NCBI GenBank assembly: GCA_963576735.1
Contig: OY755184.1
Location: forward strand, 2,542,001-2,606,000
Reading direction: 5' to 3'
Origin: Bedellia somnulentella
Lineage: Eukaryota; Arthropoda; Insecta; Lepidoptera; Bedelliidae
DNA: 64,000 nucleotides
A program made the translations under genes and the position numbers. Under the pieces are notes generated by a model. That model was given only the letters and a program-made list of their open reading frames with translations. It searched no databases and had not been told where the DNA came from. Below are positions 15,801 to 57,400 of the stretch, in pieces (within the stretch, counting starts at the first letter, position 1; each line of letters opens with the position of its first letter).

Positions 15801-18800
15801 ACTCTTAACACCAGGTGACCATACTGTCACGTGATATTCAGAAGTATTAGTATCTCTGCCACCCTTTCGAGAATATACGACGTCAACATGAAAATGAGCC
15901 TATCTCTTCCCATCGCAACTATGACCTACACTTTCTGTTAACCTTGGCCGAGTCTACACACAATGTGTGAGTAGGAAACAAAAGCGATTCATAAAAGAAA
16001 CGAGAATACCCGGTAACAACACAATCGCGACCTCTCGCTGAACATCCGATACGGGTTATTATGTCAATGTTCTGGTAGCCTCGGCACTCGGTGGCCTGCT
16101 GGTGAGATTTGCTTCGATTTCAGACGCATAAACTTACGGCTATAAGGCCCAAAAATGGGTAGGCAGGCATTCAAAGTTAAAATGTGGTATAGAATACTAT
16201 ATCAGGGGTATAGTATCAAAACAAGCTATGTCCATTCAGACAAATTTTACAGGATTCATTTTTTTTCTTTTGTTTATAATTGTAATCTCAAATTGATAAG
16301 TAACCTAATCTATACTAATATTATAAAGCTGAAGAGTTTGTTTGTTTGAACGCTAGGATCTCAGGAACTACCCAACAAGCAAAAAGTGGTTTTTAAATTA
16401 TCCTAGAACCATAATTTCTTGAGGACTATATGATACTTATATCCTCATATAAGTTGCAGAAAGGGCCCATTATATAAGTCAAATTTTACTTAATGCACAT
16501 TTAAATTAGCCCGCTTAAATGCCATATACGCCTATATGGCTCCTATAATCGAATTACGTCAGTGTAATTACTCCTGCAAATGTCAATATAAGTAACTTAT
16601 AGTCAAAAATAAGATGAATACGCGCCTAACAATTCTAATATAAGCCGTTGTAATGTAAACAGTCAAAGTGAGTGTGTTGCACGTTGTTTCGCTCTGGATT
16701 TTTTAAATAATATTTGTTCTTTATCCTTTAAAGGTAAGTATTATTTAGAATTAATTAATGTTAGCCATAATATAGGTCCCGTTTGTATCTTGTGTAGCGA
16801 ATAACGTCAGGGAAACGTGATTTTTCTGTGAAAACTCATAGGGTTATGTTCAATATTTTTAAGCGCTTCATGAATCTTGCTTATTTACATAATAGAATTA
16901 AATATTATTTCATAAATATTATGCAGGCAGCTGCCATTTTGTTGGTGAGCATTCCCAGGTGTAAAATAGAGCTAAAATAAGTCTTTTTAGCATTCCTAAG
17001 TGCTATATAGAGCCAATATAAGTATCTAGGTTTTATATTGGTCTATCTCAAAACCGAAGAAGATTCGCCATTGTTAATGATTAGGGTTCCGCAATGCCCA
17101 GATGAAAATTTTTAAATATAAACTGAAGGAATATTTTAAGGATTGAAAATTAGTTAAAACTTTATTTTTATTTGACTTAATTTAATTAATTAACAGGTCG
17201 ATATGCCGATAATCCTGGATATTGATGGATTTTTAACCAAAAAACATTTTCGATCTCTAAGAAGTCTTCGATGGCCTTGGAGTGTTACACATTTCGTGTT
17301 ATCTGAGACATGTCCCGGTTGTCACAGCCTGGTTTCTATTAACAATAGAAATTTTCATTTTATTAAGAATCAAGAACGCATTAGAGCATTGCTGTATCAA
17401 GATTGGTTTTGGTGTGACAACTGTTTTACTTACGCAGTTTATGATCACTTTCCAACAGACGAATGTGAGATTTGTAAATAATATTTACTCAATATGTAAT
17501 GTCACTATCTACGTCACACAATATTATTTTATGTGAGTAAAAGTGAATGTTCCTTTATTAACTTATAATTAAAAAAATATTTAAATAGGTAGCTATCTTA
17601 TAATTAGTCATTATTACATCAACGTTTACACATTTCCTACAGAATATCACAAAAAGTACCTACTGGCATAGCATTCTCCTTTACCACCCTACTTGATTCA
17701 AGTCATGCTATTAAATCTGGGAACGTTGTCGCCTTTATACTGATCGGGCAAAATCACTTGCGTGCGAGCATATATTATGCTGTCAATTTGAGTCGATCAA
17801 ATATGGACCGTAAACTTATAGTAAACTGCTTCTTCTTAGTTTGTCGTGTTTGCTGCCATAAAAATTATAGTGGTCTACGCGCGACGTTGCCGATCTTCTA
17901 CTTTACAGCATAGCATGGTACCGGGGAATCACCGTGCGTCTCAAATCATATTACCTTTTGTTTATTTATTTAGTGTTAGAGTTAGAGCGAAAGATCAGTA
18001 TAAATAAATCAACCGAACAGTGAGAACGTAGTTTAGTGCTTAATTTAGTGTATAATCTATACATATTCATAGTCATAGGTAACGTAACATTTGAAATTTT
18101 GGTATTTTTTCATTGAATTATCAAATTATATTTATTTTATACTTAGGTGGTTTGGTTTAATCTAATTTTAAAATAGGTGAGGTCTTGATCGTCGAAATGA
18201 TCCTTTCTCAAGTAAAAGTAGAAACTTATCTCAAACTCATAGGTGGTCGGTTCACTACTGAAAGAAAGGGAAGGTATTCATAAACATTACCTTTATATAA
18301 AACATCATAAGGTAGGCTGTTTTCTCAGCAGTGGGATACTACCTACCTAATAAAAACATTATAGTCCAGCCTCCGGTCTCTCTTCTCTCATTATTGATTT
18401 CATAATGGCAAACTGCTAATGTTGTGGGTTTGAGTCCTGTTCTGGGTGGGTTGTAAATCTGGTAATATTGTTAATTAGTTATTTTACTTGTAGAAAAAGC
18501 ATTCTTAAGGAAGTAAATGGTGCTGTATATGATGTACGAAAACTCACTTATATATTTATTAATTTTCAGATTTTTACTACCAATCACAATGCCCTATAAA
18601 GTAGTTCAGACAATGGAAAGAGGTAGATTGAGATTGACGGCTGTACCAGATCGATGGGAGCGGAATGGTATTTTGTTTTGGCCCAAAAATAAACAGGATA
18701 AACTGAGAAGAGCTGAAAACTGTGATCCAGACCAAACTTGGACACCTATTAATTGTATAGTGAAGAGAAGCAATTTAAGAACGTTAAAGGATGCAGAAAA

Positions 18801-21800
18801 TGAAATAGACGCTATGAGTGATCGGTCTGATACCGAGACCGATAACGAACGTCGCTTTCAAACAAAGCGGTCATCTCAAGATATTATTACTCAAAGTGAA
18901 TCTATGGCTAAAAGTTATAATAAGATGGCACAAGAGTTGGTAGAGGTAAGTTAAATATAGCAAATTTTCTAGATTACTAATTTAATTTTCACGATTAATT
19001 TTCGGGACTACCCCTTACTACTACTCTGACACACTTTTTTCACCTTGTAATCCTTTCATGTTTCTCTTTTCCATTGCCTTAAATACTTTATCAATCTTAA
19101 ATTTGATTTATTCTTTTACATTCAATAACATAACATACTTACATATAGTACTGATACCACTAACTCAAATTTGATCATGTACAAGTTACACAAGTTACTT
19201 GTTATATTTTCAGACTTATGAACAAGAAGCTAGTACCGTTGCTATGCCTCAACAAGTTACCATACCAACAGATGAAAGATATGTTCAAGCCGATAGTATA
19301 ATTCAAAACCAGGAACCAAAAACTGTCACAGAGGAAATAAGTCTAAGCACTGGAAATATTAATAATGAAAGCTTTTTAATCTTGAATCCAGATAATACGC
19401 AAATGCAGCAAATACAAGAGGATGTGCAGGCTATTAAACAGGATATCAAAACAATTCTAAATAATCAAAATGCTATGTTTGAACTTCAAAGCAAATTACT
19501 ATTAAAATATTCAGAATTTCAGATTCAGTTCGATGAATATATAAAACTATCTTCTAAATCCCCTGCTCTAAACCAGGATGATGCAATTAAAATTATAAGA
19601 AACTTAGAGGATTTCAATGATTTTGAAAAAAATCTTACTGACCCAAAACTTAAAGAAGAATACCAAAAAAAATTACTTAAGTTATGTAACAAAGGATCTG
19701 GAAAGGGCAGTACGAACGCATACTACCTAATTGATCACTTGTTTGAAAGAGAGTTTCTTAAAGGTTGTTCATGGACAGGATCATCAAAAAAAGACAGTGA
19801 TGGGGATAAAATTTGTTTCAAAGGTTTCAAAAACACGATAAGCTTTTTTTTTGAGACTGTTTTCGAATCGGACAAAACATTCACAAAAGCAGAATGTGAA
19901 AAGTTTTTCAAAATCATACTGAAAAATGCTCGTCAGCGCTGTGAGAGCAATAAGAGGACGTCTGCTTCAAGGCAGAGAGTTAAGGGAAAAAGAAATAAGA
20001 TTGCAACAACTTCTGAAAACGTCACAATTCCAGAACAACCAGTTCCAGTTGAGATCTTGGAGGTTGATGTGGAGGTACATCAGCCGCCTCGTTCTGATGC
20101 AGTACAGCCATCTGGTTCTGCTAATAATGCTGTACAACCATCCAATTCTGCTGTTGATGTTGTGCAGCCGAATAATTAATGTCAAAGTCTCATCATCATC
20201 ACATTTTTCCAATTAAGTTTAAGTACTTTCCATTGTTTTTTTTTTTTAGCTTTTTGCCCTTTAAAAAGGATGATTTTGTTTATATAGCCCCGGTCTAAAA
20301 GACCCAAAAATATGATTAATGCAAACCAAGTATGAGCAATGATTGTTTTATTGTTTTGTTAATTGTTATTAACTACTTTTTATTTTTTTAGACTAGTTAC
20401 TTGTTAAGAAATTGAATTTATCTGTCAGCACGGTAAACATTTTTCATACCCCGGTTCCTTTTTTGTTGTCTAGAACAGCAAAAATCCGAATGCACCTTGC
20501 ACATGCATAAGGAAAGATGTTTTTTCGTGCTGATATATGTAGGGTAAGTTTTAACAGAAGATTCAATGACAAAATTCTCGGCTTCATTTCAGCAGATCTC
20601 AATCTCACTTAGTTTGACTGCTTTAATTTACTCTGCTTCTGTAAAAACGCATCCTACCCATTGTAGGTACTTACATAAAATGTGTACTACTTAAAATGCG
20701 CAAATCCCTTCGTCAAGAAAAATAATAGCGGATATAAACAAAAATCTTGACCTCCCATACAAAGTCTGTTGACCTGTTTGTGACTTTAGTAAGTATGGAA
20801 GATTAGATATATTTTAATTTCGGGCCAACCTTACAAAGGAAATATTGTTCAGTCAGTTTCATTAAATCCCCGAAAGGATTTGCACATTTAAGCTGCCGAC
20901 AAATCTGCCGCCCCGCGCCGCGTTGCGGTGCGTCCGCGGCGCGGTATTTGTTTATAATGTATGAGTTGCTATGGAAACTGTCACACCGCAACCCGGAGCG
21001 GCGGGCGTTTGCGGTGCGGTCTAGGTGTGACAGGTTCTATAGTAACTCATACATTACAAAACAATACCGCGCCGCGGACGCACCGCAACGCGGCGCGGGG
21101 CGGCAGATTTGTCGGCAGCTTTAAAGACACAGGTTGTTTATGTATGTTTTATTTTATTTTAATTGTTAGGGTAGTTTTAAAAAATATACAATCGTAGAGA
21201 CTCATTATTAGACTGATTAAAATGTCAATTGTATTTTTAGTTGAATTTACCAGTCTGTTAAGTAATTTTTAGTGGAATGATATTAAGTTGCCTCATTAAA
21301 AAGACTGATTATTTAAAAGTACATAATCATGTAAGTTAATTAACAGATTATTTTGCGAATTTGGCAGAACTCGTTTTGTAAGCCAAGATATAGGTTCGCT
21401 GCCCAACAGAGTTTAATTTTTAGTTACCTAATTATCAAAAGCTTTTGACTAAATGATGAATAAAAGAAATGTAAAATTTTAGACATGTTTTTTTTATTCA
21501 AAACCTTTAACCTATGTTATAATGTATGTAGTAATGGCACCAAATATAAATCTGTATTATATAACACATTGACAAGCTTACACTTAATGTCTGAAACTTT
21601 ATACACGTCTCTAATCTTTTGAAGATCCCTGCAATCACATTTGAAGATATTTAAAAATGAAGAGCAAATAGGTTCCTCAAAAGCATTTTGGGTGGCTCTG
21701 ATATGGTAGCCGTGTATTTCTATTTCTTGCTCTTGGTTCTCTATATTCTTAAAATTTACCGATATAAACTCCACGACATGATTTGCTTTGGTCAGAAACC

Positions 21801-24800
21801 ATTTATCTTGTTTTTTGGCTGATAATATAAACGTCCCCAATTCTAAAACAAAAAGAGATTTTCGGCTTTTCCCTTTCGTTATTGTTGGATATTTTTTGTT
21901 TGATTTAAGTTTGTCTATATCTATTGAAGACATTTCATTTATTCTGTTAGCGACTTGAGCAAGTGCTCTGTTTCCTTGTCTGACCATTTTTTTAATTGAG
22001 TAAAGTTTATTCTCAAAGCAATATGCATTAAAGTTTTGAAGGATTCCAAATTTTCTTACCTCTTCAACCAAGTGCAGGAGGTTGTGTATATTACTAGTAA
22101 TATAGTCTTTTCCATAAATAGTTTTAAACTGCTCAACGAAATATGTTAACATTTCTTCAGCAACACGAAGCAAAGAGAAATATCTCTCATTGGAGCAAAT
22201 GGTAATAGCACAATATAAATGCATGAAATGGTTATAAGGTTCAGTTCTTAAGGTTTCCTTAAGTATTATAAAACTGAGATAGTAAAAAAAGCAACGGTAT
22301 TCAGACCCCTTCCAATGAGCTAGAACGTCAACCGACCTTACTGATCTGTGTATCTCTTTTGGCATTTTACGATCTATCAAAAAACTATTAACCTTTTCTA
22401 TGGTCTGAGCATTCCATTTCGTTAAGTAAGTGCCAAAATTTCCATCCCTCCAACCTATCAAAAGCCTTTTCATCAAGCCCAGATCTATTAAATGCAGTGA
22501 ATCCGATACAGGAAAATCTTCAATCATATCGATGTTTAACTTCAGCAAAGGTGAATCTTTCTTGTGATGTTGTCCATACTTCTTCAAATGAAAGTCGTCA
22601 TTGTTTCTTTTAAGACCTCGAGATCCAACAAATGTTACAGTATTAGATTTGTGCGAGTATTCACCGACGATTGTGCATTTCAGGCAACCATGTTTGCTAT
22701 TAAAATTCGCAACACCTGTAAAGATATTTAAATTAGCTGTAGTCATTCTGTCAGTACAAATAATTATGATGAACGTATAATTTTATTTAGTCAAGATCTC
22801 TTTTCCAGGTTGGTAGAATGAAACCTACCTAAATAAAGAATGCATTATTGTCAATAATGTAAGTAGACAATATATTTTCAGAACTCAAAATATTTAAAAT
22901 ATCGTATAAGTATAACATAATGTAACATAAGGCTAAGCATTTTATAAGTAAGATAATAAGGACTCAACTTACCTTTTATCATAGCCCTGGCTGGCGAATC
23001 GCAAATGAAAGCTCTTAGTTTTACATGCACTATTTTTTCTTCGCCTGAGTCAGCAACATTATTTATTGCTAATCCCTCTTCAAGTAGTTGCTTCATTTCT
23101 GTTACTAATGGTCCTAAAAAAGCGTCTAGATCTGATGGTTTTCCATTGCCAGCAAAGATTCCTGTTGAGAATAAAATAACATTTAATTTTCATTAAAAAA
23201 ATAAGGTTACAATACACTTCTATAAAAAATTACAAAATTCTTACCTACAGATATGTATACTATTTTATACTACATATCGAGAAAAACACTTAAAAACGTA
23301 AACATGCATACATGCTTTGAGTTTCTGATAAACCTAACTTTAAAAACATACATTTGTATACTAACTAACCCACAACAAACGGTGTCAAATTTGGTATTTC
23401 AAAGATGGTACATAATATAGGCCAAAACTGGTATCTTGAACTGTTAAACACTGGCAATCCATCAACATTTATGTTTAAAGAAATCTCATTTGGCAAACAA
23501 GAAACATTTTCATATATTTTTTTCAAACATTTGATGAGCCCATTGTGCCAGTAGTGCCCTGGAGCAGAATCACTGATGTGCAAAATTTCTTTATTTGTAT
23601 CTAGTAACGTTCGTGCGTCCTTAGGCAAAACATTGCTTATTCTTTTGTTTAAAATTTCAAGTAAAGAGTTAACCGCAGCATGAGAAATATTAAAATCTAA
23701 AGCCCAATTTTTAATAGAATACCGCAGCTCTACATTTTTGTTATAGTCTGATGATTCTTCCTGACCATCGCTTTCAATATCACTCAAAGGTTTTGTATTT
23801 TCGTAGTCCCAACCTTTTTCATCTAAAGTAGTAATAGAAATATCTTGTCCGGAACCCTCGCTAGAGTTTGCAATATGGTCTTCACCAGGTTTTAAAAATT
23901 CAGTAGTCACTGCGTTTAACATTTCTCAGTATGTCTTTTTAATTTTTCTTTTATATGATCCACTCTTTTTGAACCGCTTCCACTTATTTATATCCATTTT
24001 TAATATTTCTAGATATTTGTGAAGAAAACCAAATGTATGCAATCAAAATGGCTGACACAAAATCCTACAATAGAACTCGCAAAACTAAATAAAGCGTATT
24101 TTTTCCTATATCGGTCGTACCGAGCAAAATTGGATTTTTAAGAGTTTTAGCCAGGAGTGTTTGAGATTACTTGAGCAAGTAGAATGCCTATATAAACATA
24201 TTTAGGATTAAAATGGCATACACTAAATCCATAAAGAGAACATTTTATCCTACCGAGTGCTGTTATAATCTTACTAATTTAATATTTGTAAAATGTGGAT
24301 AATAATTTAATTTAAAACTTCCTTCTAAGCTTATGTAAAACCAAACCAAATTAAATGAATTTTACAGTAATTTAATTTTAGTCACTTATATTAGCCATAA
24401 AATATTGGCTTATATGAGTTTATAAGTAAAAATAACAAGTACAATTACTCTTCAGTGCAAATATGCCTGGTACGTGCTCATATAGAACTAGTAAGATTAA
24501 AATGGTCATCAGACGTTATCTTATATACGCATATAAGTCAGGGTTACAGGAGTAATTATGCTTCAGTGCAATTGCTCTTGCTTAATGCCCATATAGGAGT
24601 CACCATCCTATAATTGCCAGGAAATATAATCTTATATACCGATATAAGTACAAATTACAAGATTAAACTTACTTGAGTAAAATCAGCATGTATTTATGCT
24701 GTTATAAATGCGGTAGCATCCGTCAAAACCATTTTCGGAGTTATATAAATCCATATAGCATTACAAAATCGCATTCCAGGATAATTTTGCTTGTTGGGTA

Positions 24801-27800
24801 CCCAATCAAATTGAAAAATTCTTTTTGTGTTGAATAGTCCATTTATTGAGGAAGGTTTTAGGCTATATATCATCACGCTGCGACCAACAGGAGCAAACTA
24901 TCAGCGAATAATGTTGCAAAAACGGGGATAATTATTCATACTAAGTTTCCCGTTGTGTGCGCTGCGTAAACGGTTTAAGTTACCCAAAAATGTATTAAAG
25001 AATTATTTCTCTTTAAATGGTCTAAAAAAATGCCCGCTGCAGTATATGTCTAACTTTTAAGTTTCACTTACTATAACCATTTTTATGGTAAATAAATTTG
25101 GTCGAATTTAATGCATAATTGCCATAATGTTTTATCAACATAATATTAATCTTTATCCAAATAAATATGTTGTTGGTTGAGAGTATTTAATTGAGAACAA
25201 AATTGTCCTTAACATTACTTAATTTAAATAAACATCTTAGAAGATAATACAATTTTTAAATTGCTCCGTAACAAAATTTACACGCGTGCATGAAGCGCAA
25301 GACAAGACGCTGCGCTGGCCGGCGAGCGAGGTCACCTGCGCGAGAAGCTTATGTTTAAGCCTTATCTTATTAATATTATAAATGTGAAAGTTTAGATGTT
25401 TGTGTGTTTGTAGCTAAATGAAGACTAATTCACAGAACGTATTTAAAATAAAATTTACAGGAAGCCAGATAATGGTCCCAATTAACACAATAGGACACTT
25501 TTTATCCCAGAAAAATTAAGAGATCAATAAATTTTCTTAAAAAAATGTTAAACAGACTAAGAATCAATGCTCAGCCGAAACTACTATACTTATAAACTTA
25601 AAATTTATAAAGTGAAAAAATTGTGAGGACACTATGAAAAACACCTTTTTTCTCATCGCATGACAGAGACCCTCAATAGGTCAGTTAAATATTTCGGTTT
25701 GACGACGTGAAAGTCTACAATTTTGACAGTACGAAGTCTGTGGGGTCAGCTAGTGAGTAATATAAAATAAGACATAATTATTAGAATGATGTAAAATCCC
25801 TTCATACCTGTAGATCAAAAATCTACAATAATTGAGAAAAACTGTTGGACGTAGCTGATTTTGAAGCTAAGCTGCGGACGGAACCATTTTTGATTCTCAC
25901 TTCATAGGACATAACCAAGTTTGATTCTAATCTGAATCACAGGGGTAGATTTAGTGAACAATCAATCCACTTGCAGTCATCTTGCAGGGACTTCAAATAA
26001 TAGAATTGGTATTTTTAGAATCGTTGCTTAAGTCAATATTGATAAGTGAAACAAAAAAACATCATTTTTTATCAACATAATTTTCCAACATTCCATAAAC
26101 ATGCTTTGTTTGCCTTCCAATTTTGTGGCTTTGCAGTCCGTTTCCGTGCCTGGTTTTTATTCACAGGTAAGGGAAACACATCCATTTCGCTTTTTTTGTA
26201 GCAATTTAACATGAAAACACAGAATTTCTGTATTAATTTATAATAAAACTAAACAGTAAACTACAGCGTACTTGGATTGACGGCCATACTGTTTTGATGA
26301 AAATGAAGCTCTCTCATTGGTTGCCGAAAATCTAACCAGCTTTGATTCTAAACCTTGCGGACGTAGCTAAATTTGATGGCAACTTAAATTTTTGTAATGA
26401 AATAACTCTGGACAGAGCCAAATCTGATACGAAACTGTTTTTGTATTCAAATCTTAGGCTATAAATAAAAATGTTGCCATCATCAAGTCAATTTCAATAA
26501 CATGTGGACATAGCTAGTTTTGATACTATACCCCTGATATAATACACATAATTTAAATAACGTCTAAGACTAAGAAATAATCAATCATGTTCATCACATA
26601 AATGGTTCCCTCAGCGCAATTCAAACCCCGACGCCCAGAAACTTGTTACCCATATACATATATTATAATTATCAGGTCTTTTCTTCTATGTGACTTTTTG
26701 CAGTTTTGAATTTGCGTTACTAGAAGTTTTCATTTTCTTTTTATATAATCGAAGGGATCTCAAGTAAAACGGCGGCGGGCTGGCAAGCAAAACTAATAAA
26801 ATACTAAGCGATATATTTAAACTGTTTATACAAGAAATTACGCAGTTTTCGTTAATTATTTTGACTTATATCGTAAGTCAAAACAAAACATTATTGTTTA
26901 TCATCATAGCAGCAGTTTGGGGGACATTCGATATTTACTATAAGTTCGTTGATAAGAAGGTATGAGAGTTCAAATCAGAAGTCAATTTATGATTTGCAGA
27001 AGTCATCAAAAAAAATTAGGAAGATAAAGCCTTGGCATCTTTTAATTTAAGCATGATTTACAAAATCTCAAGATAAATAAATAATATTTCTACAGAAGAA
27101 TGTGCACAGAATGGTAGGCATCTGAAGCATATATGAAAATATTGGTAAAAATTGAGATGAAGTTTCAGAGGTTTCCCGGGATAATGCACTATATAGTGAT
27201 CGATTCTCTGTCTAGATAACAACTAATGGCGTAAGTATATGTAAAATTGTTATATCGCCACAAACACAACCCCTCCTTTTCCCACAAGGCATTAACATCC
27301 AAGACCCTCAAGTCGCGCTGCTTTGAAAGCATTAACAAGGAGTCAATTAACCGAATATAACTCAATCAATTGACAACAATTCCACTCAATTGCCAGCCAG
27401 CCATGTCTCGCTGCCAGATTCACCTCATCATTCATCATCACGTGATGATCGCGACGGCCAATCATGCTTTGAATGCCCTTCGTTTGTAGAAATCTTGTTA
27501 TTTTTGTTGCTTCAGCTGGCGTTTACAGTTGTTTGTATTCTCGTTTGCTTGTTTGTTTGTTTTGCTTCCCTTTGTTGTTGATGCTATTTGGATTTCATAG
27601 CGTTAATTTATGTGTTGAACTGTTATTTGATTACCTTTTTTTATTTATAATTTTTAGGGTTCCGTACGTCTGAATACAAAAACGGAACCCTTATAGGATC
27701 ACTCGTGTGTCTGTCCGTCCGTCGCTTACAGTCAATTATCTCCGAATCCATTATACCGATTAAGTTGAAATTTGGTACACATATCAATGCCTGTGACCCA

Positions 27801-39493: not shown

Positions 39494-42400
39494 GGTTTGT
39501 ATGTTCCTTATGGAAACAAAAACTACTCGACGGATTTTAACGAAACTTGGTACAATTGTTCTTCATACACCTGCGCAGGTTTTTGTATACTTTTCAGCAG
39601 AGTAGTAAAGGGGAATTTTGGGAAATTTTGGGAAAACGGGAGAAGTTACTCCATTTTTTAAGCTTCCGTCGCGTTTGCAGCCTCAATGGTTAAACTTACA
39701 TAGAAATCATGTGTGACGGAAATATTCTTCATAAAATTATCTAAAAAAAAATCCTCAACAGTTTATGTCTATCTTTTACGGTTGACTCACAATAACACGT
39801 GTAATTCCTGATAGCTTAGCAGTTCGGAACATTCTGATTGTATTTGTTTACTCTTACGTTTGTAAACCTCTCACTTATCCCTAATTTAAATAAGGTAACA
39901 TTATTATCTATTCAATAAAAAAAGAATCATAGAAATCGGTAGACAAACACCGAAATTATACATAAAATAAGCCACCGCGCCCGTGACCAAAACCAAATCT
40001 TTACTAATTTACATATAACATACTAGATGGCGCCAGTAGTTGCATCCTACATCACGTAATGAAATGATTTATTTTTTAGATTGTTATAAATACTGTTACG
40101 TACCGGGTTCTTAATTTGATAAATACCAGTCACACTTTCGTGCAATAAGGTGTAATTATATTTATTGACCAATAACGCACTTTACACAACACAACAAACA
40201 CTATCGATAATTAACTATCGATACTCGCACTAATTAACAACACTAATTTACTCCGTTATAGTAACACTGTCCACACCGTTAAGCTTATTTCCGTAATCCG
40301 TATATCACTGCACTGTCGTATTTAATTTCTTCGCTCTAGTATTTCGCTTGTTCTCGCTTTAGTTCTTCGCACTCGAATAACTCCGTAACACGCGTCGCTC
40401 TTTATATATGCCAAATCTCAAATACGCGAATATTACAGAAAGTTCTAGTACCACATTCTCGAAAAGTCGATATTCGAGAAACATCTAGTAATTCCTTTTT
40501 TTACTTACTAGTAACGCCATCTGTTATCTAGTAGTGGCAAATCCTATCTCCTACTTGCGAACAGATGTCGTAACATTACCCCCTCCTTACATTAATACTC
40601 GTCCCGAGTATTATTGCTTCCATGGTACTTCGCAAGTCGATCGATGTGAACTATTTTCGAAGCCTCTCTAGGTTGGCGTTGAATTCTGTACGTTACATCG
40701 TTTATTCTAGTGACCACCTTGTACGGTCCTTCCCACCTATTTTGTAACTTAGGGGACTTCCCTTTCTGGCGAGTTGGATTGTGTAACCAGACGAGCATAC
40801 CCTCTTCGAAACGCGGCGTGTAAGCTTTACGGTCATATCTGGTTTTCATCTTTTCACTAGCATGTAAACCATTTTCACGCACTAGGGAATGTACATCTTG
40901 CATTCTTTCCCTCAGCGGGCAACTTAATCTCAAATGGCCCCTTTTCCCGCAGCCATAACAAATCGGTCCAGTACTCCTTCCGACGGGTGCTTTAATGACC
41001 TTGACGTCCTCATTTGCTTCCGCAATCTCACGAAGTCGATGAGTTTGGCGCGTATCCTGGCGGCAAGCTTCAACTTCTAGAGCGTTCGCCAAGGCATCCT
41101 TGAGAGACGTGTGGTGTTGAAGTCTCACCGCTGTTCTCACTTCGATATCTCTGATGCCGTCGACGAATGCTTGCACCAGGTTCATTTCCACCGTCTTCGG
41201 ATCTACACTGGGATAGGCCTTGCGGACGAGCTTCTCGATTTCAAGGGCCCACTGCTGAAGTCCTTCTCCAGAACGCTGGACCCTATCACGCAGCTGAGCG
41301 CGGAACACGTGCTCCAGGTGTCGCTCTCCATAGCGAGACTCCAACGCATCCAGCAGGTCCTTGAAACCACCACTCGGAGTCGGCAGCGCCTCTATTACTG
41401 ACAGTGCTTGACCTCGGAGCGCCACCGTCAGTGCAGTCAAACACTGTTCATCAGTCCAACCATTGGCAGCCGCAACAGTCTGGAACTGATGTCTATACGC
41501 CGACCAGGATGTTGTTCCGTCGTAGGGAGGAACCTTCACACGAGGACCATGGACAGCTACTACATTCTCACCGGAGACAACCTTGACCGGTCGTGATTCA
41601 AGCTGCAGAACCCTTTTCTCCATTCCGCGGAAGTCGGTCTTCATGTCATCGATATCTTTCTCAATAGTGGTTACCTGCTCCTTCATCTGCTCTACGTCTT
41701 TTTCCACAGTAACCACCCGACCACTGACTTCATTGACCGCAGTGAGAACTTGTGAGAACTTAGTTTGCTGTTCCTCGCGCAACTCACGAACTTCTTGTTT
41801 CACAACACCCTGTACCTCCGAATGTATGTTTTTTTTAACATCCTGTACCTCCGAATGTATGTTTTTCACAACATCCTGTATGCTTTGTTGTGCTTCACGC
41901 ATGCTTTGAAACATTTCAACTATCATCGTCAAGTCAGTATTAGTTGCGGCCGCCGGCGCCGTTGATGTAGACGGCGCGTTAGTCACCGCGGACGTCTCCT
42001 CTGGAATGTCACTCCGAGGGTTCGTGACCGATGAACTCATTTCCGACAGCTGTTCACCCTCTGCGGCTTTCTGAGCGCGTGTCTTCACACCCTCTCTTCC
42101 GTCTTCCTTCGGCATAACTGGCATCTTCAAATCCACTTCTGTCACCAATTGTTACGTACCGGGTTCTTAATTTGATAAATACCAGTCACACTTTCGTGCA
42201 ATAAGGTGTAATTATATTTATTGACCAATAACGCACTTTACACAACACAACAAACACTATCGATAATTAACTATCGATACTCGCACTAATTAACAACACT
42301 AATTTACTCCGTTATAGTAACACTGTCCACACCGTTAAGCTTATTTCCGTAATCCGTATATCACTGCACTGTCGTATTTAATTTCTTCGCTCTAGTATTT

Positions 42401-51400: not shown

Positions 51401-54400
51401 ACTAAACTTTACTTTAACTTTACTTTACTTAACCGATTTTAAGAATTATTTTTCACATTCACACATTGACTATAATATATCACACGCAATATTCCATAAG
51501 GGTCATTGAAGTTACCCTAGATATCTAAAAAATAACATTACTCGTACAAACCTGGGCGGTCCATTAGCTTAAAATAAACAGATGCGACATATTTTGACTC
51601 AAATAATCTTAAACCGTACCGTCTTCTAAGGTGTGGCAAAAGTACTAAGATTCCATCACGTGACATTATTGTCATCTGGTGTTCAGAGTAGTCAAATTTG
51701 CTTAGAAAATGCATTCACGTCATCAGTGCAGGTCTCTGCCATGTGGGTTTCCTCACATTTCTCTAATCTTACGACTTTAAGTCATTGTACCATTTGTAAA
51801 TAACACTAAAGGTTTGTAAGGAATATCACAACTCTGAAAACTATTAGAATACAAGATAATTAAAGGACCGTAAAACAGGTACTAGAAACAAAAGGTCGCT
51901 AATCCTTATCATCCCATCTTTAATATTATCTATCACCTAAAAGTGACTAATGATTCCAGTTCCAAGAACCATGGAAACAACAGACGGAAACTTTCCACTC
52001 AGTGAGTAACTGAGCATGACAAAACGTAACAATGTATACATGTTAATTCGATTTGGATGAAATTTGCGTTGCGATTTAATCAGTTGCGCAGAGTCGGCTT
52101 GGAATAGCAATGTCGGTTTCTTTATTTGAACAAGACGGGAAAGACAGCGTTGCCCCATATTATCCCAGGGGAGAAGCGGAGGTACTAGTAATATAGCGTA
52201 TTATTCCAGTACAGTAAAATTAATGTGTCTAAGACGTGGGAGAAGAAAAAGATACTAATATGATTAGAATTCTGAGTTAAAGATATTTATTTATTTATTT
52301 ATTTATTCAAGGCACACCAACAGCATTATAACATAGATTGCATTAACATTTATTTTTAAAGTATTGGTCAGTTATAATGCCAACAACAGTGCACACAGCA
52401 TTGACAATATTATAACTTAAAGATATAACTAAAAATTTGATTAAAAACTTTAATAAAATAAAACTAGAATAGACAATTAAAATTCCTAACATTAATAATA
52501 AATTACAAACAAAAAAATCAATAAAATTAAATAAAATTATAAAAAAAAAGTGACAATACCAAATCATTTGAAAATTTGTATTTAATAAGAATTTAAATAA
52601 TAAAATAATAATAATAATTGATTAATTAATTTCTGGCACCAATTGCCTACATTTTTTCTTAAAACTAAACAGTGAGTCATTATAGACGTCAGGCTCGCAT
52701 TCATGACCTATTGCACACAATGAATTGTAAAGTTGGCAGACTCTGTGGATAGGGTTGTTTGCGGCCATGTTTGTTCTCACAGTCGGGACGGCCAGAGGGC
52801 GAGCTCTTTGGGGACCGTTCAGCTGAATTAAGGGCAATAATGAGGATGACATAGATCCATCAATAATCTTGTGCAAAGTAGCTAAATCCTGGAGTTGCCT
52901 GCGAGCAAGCAAAGGATCCAGTTTAAAATACCTACACCTTTCCTCATATGATCTCAACTGCCTTCTCAGATTCGAGCGCGAAGCCAAAAGCCTAACAAAT
53001 CGTTTTTGAACAGATTCGAGGTTCTCTATATGGGTGTTATAAATAGGTGTCCATATTACACATGCGTACTCTAACTTACTTAAAACAAAAGATTTAAAAA
53101 GTCTAACCATACTTTGGGGGTTTCTAAAATCCCTTGTTACTCTAGAAAGAAATCCAAGCAGCCTATAACACTGATTCACTATCTCAACACACTGTTCCGC
53201 AAACGATAATTTTGTATCTAGAAGTACCCCAAGATCCTTGACAACTGACTTCCTAGTTAGTGTCTTTTGCCCAACTCTATAATCGTACGAAATCGTATTG
53301 CTTTTCATTGTAAATGTTGTGGTAAAGCATTTATCTATATTTAATTTCATGTAATTTTTTGTGCACCAAGTATTAATTACGTCAATATCCCTCTGCAAAT
53401 CCTCACAGTCGTCAAGCGTGTGAACAACCCTAAAGATCTTTAAATCATCAGCAAAGAGAAGACAGGGGTTGTGAAGATGGCCAACCAGGTCGTTAATAAA
53501 TATGTTAAATAGTAACGGTCCCAATATAGATCCCTGGGGAATTCCAGAGGTTGCTGTTATCGGTTTGGAAAGGTAACCCTGTAATGCAACTAGTTGGGAC
53601 CTGTTCTCCAAGTATGACTTAAGCCACCTTAGTAAACTCCCGTGAACCCCATAAGCCTCTAGTTTACCATTCATGATAACATGTATGAGCTTGTCAAATG
53701 CTTTCATGAAATCGGTATAAATAGCATCAACCTGAGCACGCTCCCCAAAAGATTTGTGTATGTAATTCACGTATTCCATTAAATTAGTAACAGTGGATTT
53801 TCCCTTGATAAAACCATGTTGTTCAGGAACTATAAAGGATTTCATATGGAAGCTCAAAGCATCAAATACGAATGACTCAAAAACCTTTGATAAACATGAC
53901 AAGATGCTAACCGGCCTATAGTTGCTGCAATCAGACAAGTTCCCGGACTTGTGTATTGGCATGATAAAAGCTTTTTTCCAGTAACTAGGAAATACTCCCA
54001 TTTCAAGGCTTTTATTGAAAATAAGGTAAAGTGGATACGTTAACGCTTTAGCGCAAGCTTTTATAAACATTGGGGGGATACCGTCCGGTCCGGAACCCTT
54101 ATTCACATCTACCTGTTTTAATTTTGTAAGAATATCGTTTTCAGATACGGAAAAACTAGATAAGGTTGTGTGGGATATTATGTGGGAGTAATCATAATGG
54201 ATGTTGTGTATATCCCTCTCGTATACAGAGGCGAAGAATTCTGCGAACATGTTACATACATTTTCAGGTCCACTGACAGAGTTTCTTCCTAGAAACATAG
54301 TGTTAGGTATGGAATTATTGTACTTTTTCGACTTTACAAACGAGAAAAACAACCTATTATTTGAATCAAGAGAGGCTTCTATACTTTCAACATAACTAGA

Positions 54401-57400
54401 ATAGCCATTTTTAATTAATTGTTTAGATCTAGCACGAAGTAAGGAAAATTCGTCGTAGTCACGTGGGTTTCCGTACTTTTTATATCTTTTATGTACTTTT
54501 TTCTTATCTTCGATACATTGCTTTAACGGTTCGGAAAACCAAATTGGATATGAGTAGGTATTAATATTTTTCAGTGGTGTATTTTCAGAAATAATTTTAT
54601 TTAAGGTAGAATAGAACAAGTCTATGTTACAGTTTATATCACGATCGCCCAAAAGCTCTAACCAGTTTACCTCTTCAATCGATTTGACACATTGAGCTAT
54701 ATTGCATTTTCTAAAATTAAAAACTCTTTTCCTCAGTGGTTTAGGAGGTTTAGGACCATATAGTGATTCAAGCAATATATGTGCTGTTGAAACAAGGAGT
54801 AAATTCCAAAAAACCCAAGCATATATTAAGCAAGCCGACTCGAGCAAATAAAAGCCTTTTCGACAAACAACACGAGTGCAAAAACAATACTCGACTATTA
54901 ATTAAACAAAGTAGACTATAGAAGGCCAAAAAATAAGTGCAAGTTCAAGATCAGAAAGCGTTGCCGAGTCAATATTTAAATGTCAATTTGTACAGAGTAC
55001 GTGTACTGTGTCGTTCATCCGCGTTTGTAGATCACACTCGAGTCTTTTCTAGATAAGTGTCGGCTTAGGTTTGCACTACTCTATTTCTCTCTCTCTGAGT
55101 ATCCAATAAGTTGTCCAACTGTTTTGGGGCTTTCCAAGTCATTTTCGAACGACGTGGCGTGATATCACGTCACCATTCTCGTTTCTACTATATTAGTTAC
55201 TAAGTTCTAGGTACCCCTTTAGAATTTATAGCATATATTTTTATGTAAGTACGGGTTCGTAGCCTCGTAGGTATTTGCGTGTCATTAAGCAACCGTCTCA
55301 TATACACATACCTAATTCCGCATATAGCCATCTCAGTCTCTACGATCAGATAAGATATGACGATACTGAGGGATGTGGTAACGATAACGACAGACCGGTC
55401 TGAAAGCCTGCGTCAGTTATCTAACGCAGCCTACGTCTTATTACCACCAACCTGCAGTATACAGCCTATCTTGCAAATGAAGGGCTTACGACAGCTTGTT
55501 TTAAGTACCTACCTATTGGTGTAAGATAAAACTTACATACATATACTCATAACATAACATAAACATTCACGCCGAATATCCCCGAAGGGGTTGGCAGAGG
55601 TACTAATACTTCTGAACATCACGTGACTTTGGCACCTGGTGTTCAGAGTACCCACGTTTTGCATGGACAGTGTACTCACGTGATAGGGGGCAGGCCTATC
55701 GCCGTTTTGTACGAATACACTGCCACATGACTAAGTACAACTCAGCCATGTGGGTTTCCTCACGATGTTTTCCCTCACCGTTAACAACCATGATAAATTA
55801 ACCACACATATGTCTTTAGAAAAGACAAATTGGTGTAGGCCCGACCCAGGATTTGAACACTAGTCGTTTTCACGATAACCGAGTGTTCTACCCACTGGGC
55901 TATCACGGTTACATATAGGTATAGGGGCTTTTAAAGTGATTTTTGGGCGATGTGGTTGGAGACCCGTCACCAAAACATTTATTATTTATTACCATCTTTT
56001 CCCCAATCAACTTCCAAAAGTGGCTGAGGAATTTATAATTCCTTGGCTCTGGCTACGCCTTCTAGGGAATTATAGCCGTGAGTATATGTATGTATGTATA
56101 CTAGTATCAATTTGTGGTCACGAGTAAATATTTTAATACTTTAACAACATTCAAACCTACGTCTAGCTGAAAATAGAAGTACAGGCTTAAAATAAGAGAT
56201 CTTATAAAAAAAGGAGAGGGTAGACTATATTTGTGAAATAGTTAGAATAACACAAACCCCTTTTTTTCCAGGTGTCGTATAAGATGATTATAAATTGTGG
56301 TGTGGACGATGTGGCTAAATATATCACCAGCAACCGAAGCTCTACTTTCCAAATTGATTAAAAAATAAATAAATGCAGCCCTGGCTACTTCTCTACAAGA
56401 TTACATCCTTTATAGGATTTATAGCCGTGCGTATAGGTTGCCAAAAAGTAAGGTTCGTAAAATAAAGTGGTTTAAAACCGGTAGGAGTGTAAAAACTTTC
56501 ACATGGTAACCAGGAAGTGGTTGGCATGCAAAACATCAGCACAACTTTCGATTCGCACAGCTTTGTCGAATTATAAGCAGCAGTCATGTAATCTGAGATG
56601 ACCAAGCGACCTTTACATTGCATGACTATAGCTTCACCTACCAACCTTTAGTCACGAATTTAAATCTAAGAAATTGGTAAATCAAGAGCCGGAATTAGAA
56701 TTTAGTTCAGAGAAAAAAATATCGATTGATGATGGGGTTTGTGGCTGTTCGTAAAGCACTGGCAGAAATGAGGTAGTGATTTCCTAATCTTACATTACAC
56801 CGAAGTGCATTCTTTTGGCGTATTTACGCAGACTCTTATTTTAAAGACCAGAACCTTGATCAGATAAGAATTAAGAAACTAGGGTAGAAATAATGATGGT
56901 ATATTTGTGAAAATATCCAGAGGGAAACTCATATGACTGAGTTGTCTTTATTAATAGGCCTGTAATTATCTACAGAAGATTATATGAACACCCAGTGTCA
57001 AAATGTCAACCGCTTTAAAACATCCTGATATCATTTACGATTGGCAAATACAAAGAGTTTGGAAACTTTCACAAACTAATCAGAGAATGTTGATGAAACC
57101 AGCTCTTAGTATTGTTTATCGAAACATTTCAACGATATATTTCACAAAACATACGCGTTACTGGTTTATGCAATAACTTACGTTTACACACCAAATTAAT
57201 GGATTAATTTTATATCTATGAAAATGTTACGACGTAACATCTTTTATGACATTATATTACAAATACCGCGGTCCTACCAAAGTTTTTTTCTAAGAGTTCA
57301 TATTTTCATAGTTTGTGTGTTTGAATAATCACAGTTTTATCTTTAATCACATACATACATATACTAACGGCCATAGATCCCAAAAAGTGGTAGCCAGAGC

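What the first reader, a model, noticed from the sequence alone, without database searches (positions are those of the whole stretch)
16371..24798. Apparently intact three-gene DNA transposon with an unfamiliar layout
The sequence shows 14-bp CCCAACAAGCAAAA terminal repeats, TA on both sides, and an empty site that is restored when the element is removed. Inside are three open genes: a 92-aa protein with three CxxC pairs, a spliced 440-aa DUF4806 protein, and a spliced 646-aa transposase with D154, D239 and E482 in tnp2-like blocks. CACTA elements normally pair a transposase with a tnpA-like protein that binds subterminal repeats. Here the DUF4806 protein and the ATATAAGT-type repeats could be the counterpart. 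The termini are not CACTA and the duplication is 2 bp. I am not aware of a named family with this gene set.
Basis: partly seen in the sequence, partly recalled or inferred. Interest (0 to 1): 0.9.

Follow-up and report, generated by a model that had tools for sequence, protein, structure and literature searches.

The report
Insect CACTA-type transposon with BEN-fold partner
This is a recently spread cut-and-paste DNA transposon of a known animal branch of the CACTA group; besides its transposase it carries a gene whose protein is predicted to fold like a known DNA-binding domain and may be the partner that recognises the element's ends.

Summary
Window 16371-24798 is a transposon with 14-bp CCCAACAAGCAAAA inverted ends, a TA repeat, an empty site and the three genes described. 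It is one of 13 both-ended copies in its genome (median pairwise substitution 0.216%). The layout is not unplaced: CCC ends, 2-bp duplications of varied sequence (12 of 13; one 3 bp) and a tnp2-like DDE transposase with C-x2-C and H-x3-H are features of animal CACTA elements (TRC, DeMarco et al. 2006; EnSpm in Repbase). The window copy is not intact: an in-frame stop cuts off a basic N-terminus that the other 12 copies read through. New here: DUF4806 is predicted to have a BEN DNA-binding fold, and outside this family 19 of 29 DUF4806 hits lie within 12 kb of a related transposase, all 19 convergent (0.10 expected). CxxC hits are also linked (21 of 36, all convergent). I read the DUF4806/BEN protein as the TNPA-like binder of the ATATAAG subterminal repeats; binding is inferred, not shown. 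The three genes do not always travel together. I found no report of this gene set in the papers held here; Repbase and Dfam were not on hand.

The parts
16369..16370 (.). left copy of the 2-bp target site duplication (TA)
   Evidence: empty site
16371..16384 (+). left terminal inverted repeat CCCAACAAGCAAAA
16436..17022 (.). left subterminal repeats: ATATAAG on either strand at 16436(-), 16447(+), 16472(+), 16586(+), 16638(+), 17016(+); 16436/16447 form CTTATAT-N4-ATATAAG
   Evidence: 0 of 500 shuffles reach the count
17203..17481 (+). gene 1: 92-aa protein with three CxxC pairs; all six cysteines invariant in the three sequences compared
18589..18945 (+). gene 2 (DUF4806 protein) exon 1, 119 codons
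19214..20179 (+). gene 2 exon 2; PF16064 DUF4806 at 19595-19855; predicted long helix then BEN-like fold
20887..21124 (.). fold-back inside the element between genes 2 and 3: 101-nt arms, 93% complementary
   Evidence: PF13960 DUF4218, 22.7 bits against a cut-off of 27
22973..23161 (-). gene 3 exon 2; PF02992 match (22.8 bits against a cut-off of 28.6), D239
23926..23928 (-). in-frame stop codon private to the window copy (codon 24 of the 671-codon frame)
24385..24648 (.). right subterminal repeats: ATATAAG at 24385(-), 24409(-), 24520(-), 24531(+), 24631(-), 24642(+); two CTTATAT-N4-ATATAAG palindromes
24785..24798 (-). right terminal inverted repeat
24799..24800 (.). right copy of the target site duplication (TA)

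Best explanation
The element belongs to a young family of animal CACTA-type (TRC/EnSpm) cut-and-paste transposons in a probably lepidopteran genome (host inferred from the best protein matches). Shown by sequence: both-ended copies, 2-bp duplications, deletion derivatives and a DDE transposase with CMC signatures. Inferred: the transposase cuts at the CCC ends and inserts with a 2-bp stagger. The DUF4806 protein, a predicted long helix followed by a predicted BEN-type DNA-binding domain, binds the palindromic CTTATAT-N4-ATATAAG repeats inside both ends and brings the ends and transposase together, as TNPA does in maize En/Spm. The 92-aa protein is a small, probably zinc-binding accessory of unknown role.
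Confidence: 0.75

Rival explanations
1. The DUF4806 protein is a transcription regulator of the element (self-regulation or anti-silencing), not a component of the transposition complex; end binding is incidental.
For: Solved BEN domains in the list are of host factors; BEN proteins are described as transcriptional or chromatin proteins (PMC10080584, passages). Maize TNPA acts on its promoter as well as in transposition (PMC1636069, passage).
Against: Repeats lie at both ends, including the end far from the DUF4806 gene, which fits an end-complex role at least as well as promoter control; not decisive.
Confidence: 0.3
2. The DUF4806 and CxxC genes are captured host genes that ride along without a function in transposition.
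For: Ten of 29 outside DUF4806 hits and 15 of 36 outside CxxC hits have no detected transposase within 12 kb; DUF4806 genes are listed for zebrafish and Hydra (PMC11075544; PMC7642931).
Against: The same convergent order recurs in four further families at the 80% identity rule and in an eight-copy family that I could not cluster, and N- and C-terminal regions of the protein are conserved; unused passengers would hardly be kept so.
Confidence: 0.1
3. A TA-specific element of another superfamily (ESTA-like or Tc/mariner-like) rather than CACTA.
For: TA at the window copy.
Against: 11 of 13 copies have another duplication: TT, AA, AT, CA, AG or TTA; the transposase carries tnp2 and DUF4218 matches.
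Confidence: 0.02

Closest known systems
Animal TRC elements of the CACTA superfamily (SmTRC1, Aedes aegypti 9.2-kb element CCCAGTCAAC, Tribolium castaneum CCCTAGTAGC...; DeMarco et al. 2006)
   Same: CCC termini, 2-bp duplications, Transposase_21, size range
   Different: SmTRC1 makes alternatively spliced non-transposase proteins without detected similarity in other elements; the paper is not among the 4 that name DUF4806
Spongebob / EnSpm-4N1_HM of Hydra (PMC4298943)
   Same: TIR begins CCCAGCCAACATTGAC, 2-bp duplication, called TRC
   Different: authors could not find the exact transposase because of stops or frameshifts; not among the 4 papers that name DUF4806
Plant En/Spm (CACTA)
   Same: two-protein logic, TNPA and TNPD; tnp2-type transposase
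   Different: CACTA termini, 3-bp duplication (EnSpm); TNPA not of BEN type as far as I recall
ESTA of fungi (PMC12730594)
   Same: EnSpm-like transposase group with C2C and H3-4H
   Different: ESTA duplications are TA; here varied 2 bp
BEN-domain proteins (insv, Bsg25A, BEND6, BANP, NACC1)
   Same: predicted fold of the DUF4806 domain; DUF4806 is called a BEN subtype, after Pan et al. 2023, in PMC11075544
   Different: those are host factors; here the gene lies in a transposon

Membership tests
Animal TRC / EnSpm branch of CACTA | CCC at the start of the terminal inverted repeats | tested here: met
   window copy; the other 12 pairs were found by this exact 14-mer, so they do not test it independently, but element and flank part right there in all
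Animal TRC / EnSpm branch of CACTA | 2-bp target site duplication | tested here: met
   12 of 13 paired copies perfect 2 bp, 1 of 13 3 bp TTA
Animal TRC / EnSpm branch of CACTA | Transposase_21 (tnp2) domain | tested here: met
   window exon 22.8 bits, below the 28.6 cut-off; Cydia relative with 80% identity 32.9 bits, above it; 10 of 15 relatives match at E<=0.01
Animal TRC / EnSpm branch of CACTA | C(2)C and H(3-4)H between second D and E of the DDE triad | tested here: met
   C258/C261, H458/H462
Animal TRC / EnSpm branch of CACTA | transposase groups with SmTRC1 and other TRC in a tree | not tested
   no TRC reference sequences were fetched
Plant En/Spm (CACTA in the narrow sense) | CACTA terminal core | tested here: not met
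   ends are CCCAA
Plant En/Spm (CACTA in the narrow sense) | 3-bp duplication | tested here: not met
   1 of 13
ESTA | TA target site duplication | tested here: not met
   2 of 13 copies TA
BEN domain (DUF4806 protein) | BEN fold | tested here: met
BEN domain (DUF4806 protein) | PF10523 sequence profile at its cut-off | tested here: not met
   E 0.008-0.024, below cut-off, in 4 of 5 proteins, no match in the fifth
BEN domain (DUF4806 protein) | sequence-specific DNA binding | not testable with these tools
   needs protein
TNPA-like function | binds subterminal repeats and is needed for transposition | not testable with these tools
   repeats present; binding not tested

The most novel reading that the evidence does not exclude
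A large branch of animal CACTA transposons uses a BEN-fold DNA-binding protein (DUF4806) as its essential second transposition factor, encoded convergently to the transposase. Much of the scattered DUF4806 gene content of animals would then be transposon cargo or derived from it, and the 92-aa CxxC protein would be a further accessory that deletion derivatives tend to keep.
Probability: 0.5. Interest if true: 0.72.

Novelty: new variant of a known kind. Interest (0 to 1): 0.55.

Why it matters
Animal CACTA transposases were described in 2006, but that paper found no similarity between its candidate TNPA-like proteins and other elements and asked for experimental verification; I saw no later answer in the papers listed here. 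A conserved gene with a predicted DNA-binding fold, convergent with the transposase in several families, gives a concrete candidate and a concrete DNA target. It also gives an origin hypothesis for DUF4806 genes, which genome papers list as enriched or numerous in a beetle and in Hydra and as a small group in zebrafish (passages).

Tried and rejected
TA-specific superfamilies: rejected on the duplications of the other copies. A longer duplication (TACCCAA) from the CCCAA that follows the right TA: rejected, because the other copies lack it and 40 of 40 scored empty-site paralogues match the joined query over its whole length at 99%. 'CxxC-only' loci as a sign that the gene lives apart: the one read (L061) held transposase exon 1 on the opposite strand, i.e. 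an internal deletion of the same layout. With an exon-1 query from L061 added, 21 of 36 outside CxxC hits have a transposase within 12 kb; with the exon-2 and exon-3 queries alone it was 4 of 32 (hits with E up to 0.001). The exon-1 query comes from a CxxC-bearing locus, so copies of that one family make up most of the gain, and the 36 include 4 hits with E above 0.001 and two adjacent hits at one place (C69).

Dead ends: AlphaFold of the CxxC protein was poor (mean pLDDT 54.9) and is not used. The ends of the eight-copy sister family were not found in the 5.5 kb read. PF02992 as a six-frame genome query found nothing, in the 14 controls either, so it shows nothing. Sequence search of the PDB gave no relevant match. 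Rfam gave 0 matches in 16000-25200. The fold-back at 20887-21124 could not be searched in the genome.
Full report
What is there. Window 16371-24798 is flanked by TA and ends in perfect 14-bp inverted repeats. The same 14-mer occurs 17 times in each orientation in the 548.9-Mb genome, against once each for the pattern read backwards. Of the 34 matches, 26 make 13 pairs in inverted orientation, one being the window's. I fetched the other 12. The 13 are 3.2-13.9 kb long; the 12 are 99.1-100% identical to the window copy in their same-order blocks. Median pairwise substitution is 0.216% over 78 pairs, so the family spread recently. Of the 8 unpaired matches I fetched 7 (not C209): three are damaged or one-ended copies of the family (L024, L026, L028), one (L027) is an 88.7% identical relative over the left 300 bases, and three (L022, L023, L025) show no nucleotide match to the element beyond the 14-mer apart from a weak 38-base match in L023.

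Target sites. The duplications next to the ends are TT, TT, AA, AT, TA, AT, CA, AG, AA, AG, AT and TA (window), plus one copy (L021) with 3-bp TTA instead: 12 of 13 are perfect 2-bp repeats, and 2 are TA. The window copy sits in a high-copy repeat. The joined flanks match 40 of 40 scored uninterrupted places at 99% over all 133 positions; the first look had 1489 candidates.

Genes. The transposase has D154, D239, C258/C261, H458/H462 and E482. In 15 relatives the first D, both C, the first H and the E are invariant, and the second D and second H are kept in 14. One fault was missed. Three of four relatives that I read (P0001, P0002, P0005; the fourth, P0012, starts later) begin with a basic stretch. 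The other 12 copies have no stop there. Of the 8 copies with all six exons at full length, 1 has all three frames open; the CxxC frame is open in 7 of 8, the DUF4806 frame in 4 of 8 and the transposase frame in 3 of 8 (splice sites were not checked copy by copy).

What it is. Sequence matches are to tnp2 (PF02992) and DUF4218 (PF13960), in the window itself below the cut-offs, in the Cydia relative above it for PF02992, and in 10 of 15 relatives each at E up to 0.01. The terminal CCC, the 2-bp duplications and the Transposase_21 domain are what DeMarco et al. (2006; PMC1636069, passages, section 6) gave for 'TRC', the animal CACTA elements, with an Aedes element of 9.2 kb ending in CCCAGTCAAC. 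PMC4298943 (passages) gives CCC and 2 bp for Spongebob of Hydra, a Repbase EnSpm. I therefore file it there. PMC12730594 (passages) states CA..TG termini in most cases for the wider group, which is not so here. No transposase tree was made, so the filing rests on features. The best 120 of 414 protein matches include moths, butterflies, beetles, mosquitoes and other flies.

Linkage. I searched the genome with PF16064 (40 hits), the CxxC protein (50 hits at E up to 10) and three transposase queries, which merge into 86 loci. Within the window family 9 of 11 DUF4806 and 11 of 14 CxxC hits have a transposase within 12 kb, all convergent. Outside it, 19 of 29 DUF4806 hits do, 19 of 19 tail to tail, against 0.10 expected by chance; for CxxC it is 21 of 36, 21 of 21 convergent, 0.13 expected. 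The hits are not independent. At 80% nucleotide identity the 23 loci I clustered form 8 families, the window's included. Comparing, four of the other seven have a convergent DUF4806 gene; so has an eight-copy family (C19:6998090 and its like) that I could not cluster and judge separate by its scores. CxxC is seen with the transposase in the L058/L061 family, at C9:6548827 and at C279.

Do the three travel together? Not always. All three were found together only in the window family. The eight-copy family shows no CxxC-like frame of 60 aa or more in about 2 kb upstream of its DUF4806 exon 1, judged by eye in one copy. L061 has CxxC and transposase exon 1 back to back, with exons 2-3 and DUF4806 missing between them; L058 has CxxC next to exons 1-2. 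All 4 strongly deleted paired copies of the window family (L009, L011, L013, L014) keep the CxxC gene, in L009 with a frameshift near its end; the 1.2-kb copy L026 does not. Whether the gene or merely the end region is what is kept cannot be told from so few.

The CxxC protein. One relative (87% identity) was found in the protein collection, whose search needs shared 5-residue words. With the L061 copy (51%), 39 positions are invariant in three sequences, among them all six cysteines and the block T-H-F-V-L-S. It looks like a small zinc-binding protein; no model is usable.

Mechanism. Shown: mobility in the past (copies, duplications, empty site), deletion derivatives, ATATAAG repeats concentrated at both ends and arranged three times as CTTATAT-N4-ATATAAG with 11-bp offset. 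Inferred from En/Spm: the DUF4806/BEN protein dimerises through its long helix, binds these palindromes and helps the transposase pair the ends; the transposase cuts at CCC and joins with a 2-bp stagger.

Print. Only 4 papers of the held library name DUF4806, none with EnSpm. I saw the DUF4806 passages of three (not about a transposon) and not the fourth (PMC11445403, listing only). CACTA with 'BEN domain' gave 2 papers; in the one on Lepidoptera the terms are in unrelated passages, the other was judged by title and abstract start. A search on TRC terms gave 1 paper. Repbase and Dfam were not available, so an annotation of this gene set there cannot be excluded.

Noticed in passing
window 20887-21124: Near-perfect fold-back (101-nt arms, 93% complementary, DNA fold z -21) in the middle of the element, seen also in the other fetched copies that hold this region; possibly a nested fold-back element older than the family's spread.
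   Followed up: partly
L009, L011, L013, L014; L061 1-1800: Internally deleted copies in two different families lose DUF4806 and much of the transposase gene but keep the CxxC gene.
   Followed up: partly
L059, L060 and hits at C19:6998090, C19:13633494, C27:242950, C27:5973162, C2:17304483, C10:8942424, C12:18257480, C21:7182896: A sister family whose eight transposase exon-3 hits score almost identically (53% identity to the window's): probably another young family, with convergent DUF4806 and no CxxC seen in about 2 kb upstream of DUF4806 exon 1 in the one copy read.
   Followed up: partly
window 16200-16370 and 24799-24930: The insertion lies in a high-copy host repeat (1489 first-look candidates for the 133-nt joined flank, 40 scored).
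   Followed up: no
L022, L023, L025: The same 14-bp end without nucleotide similarity to the element; L023 also holds a short transposase-like C-terminal piece (26 aa, 58%), so perhaps a related family with the same ends.
   Followed up: partly
window 40592-42151 (-) and 52622-54901 (-): Long frames that look by eye like a retrotransposon gag with a zinc knuckle and a LINE-type reverse transcriptase.
   Followed up: no
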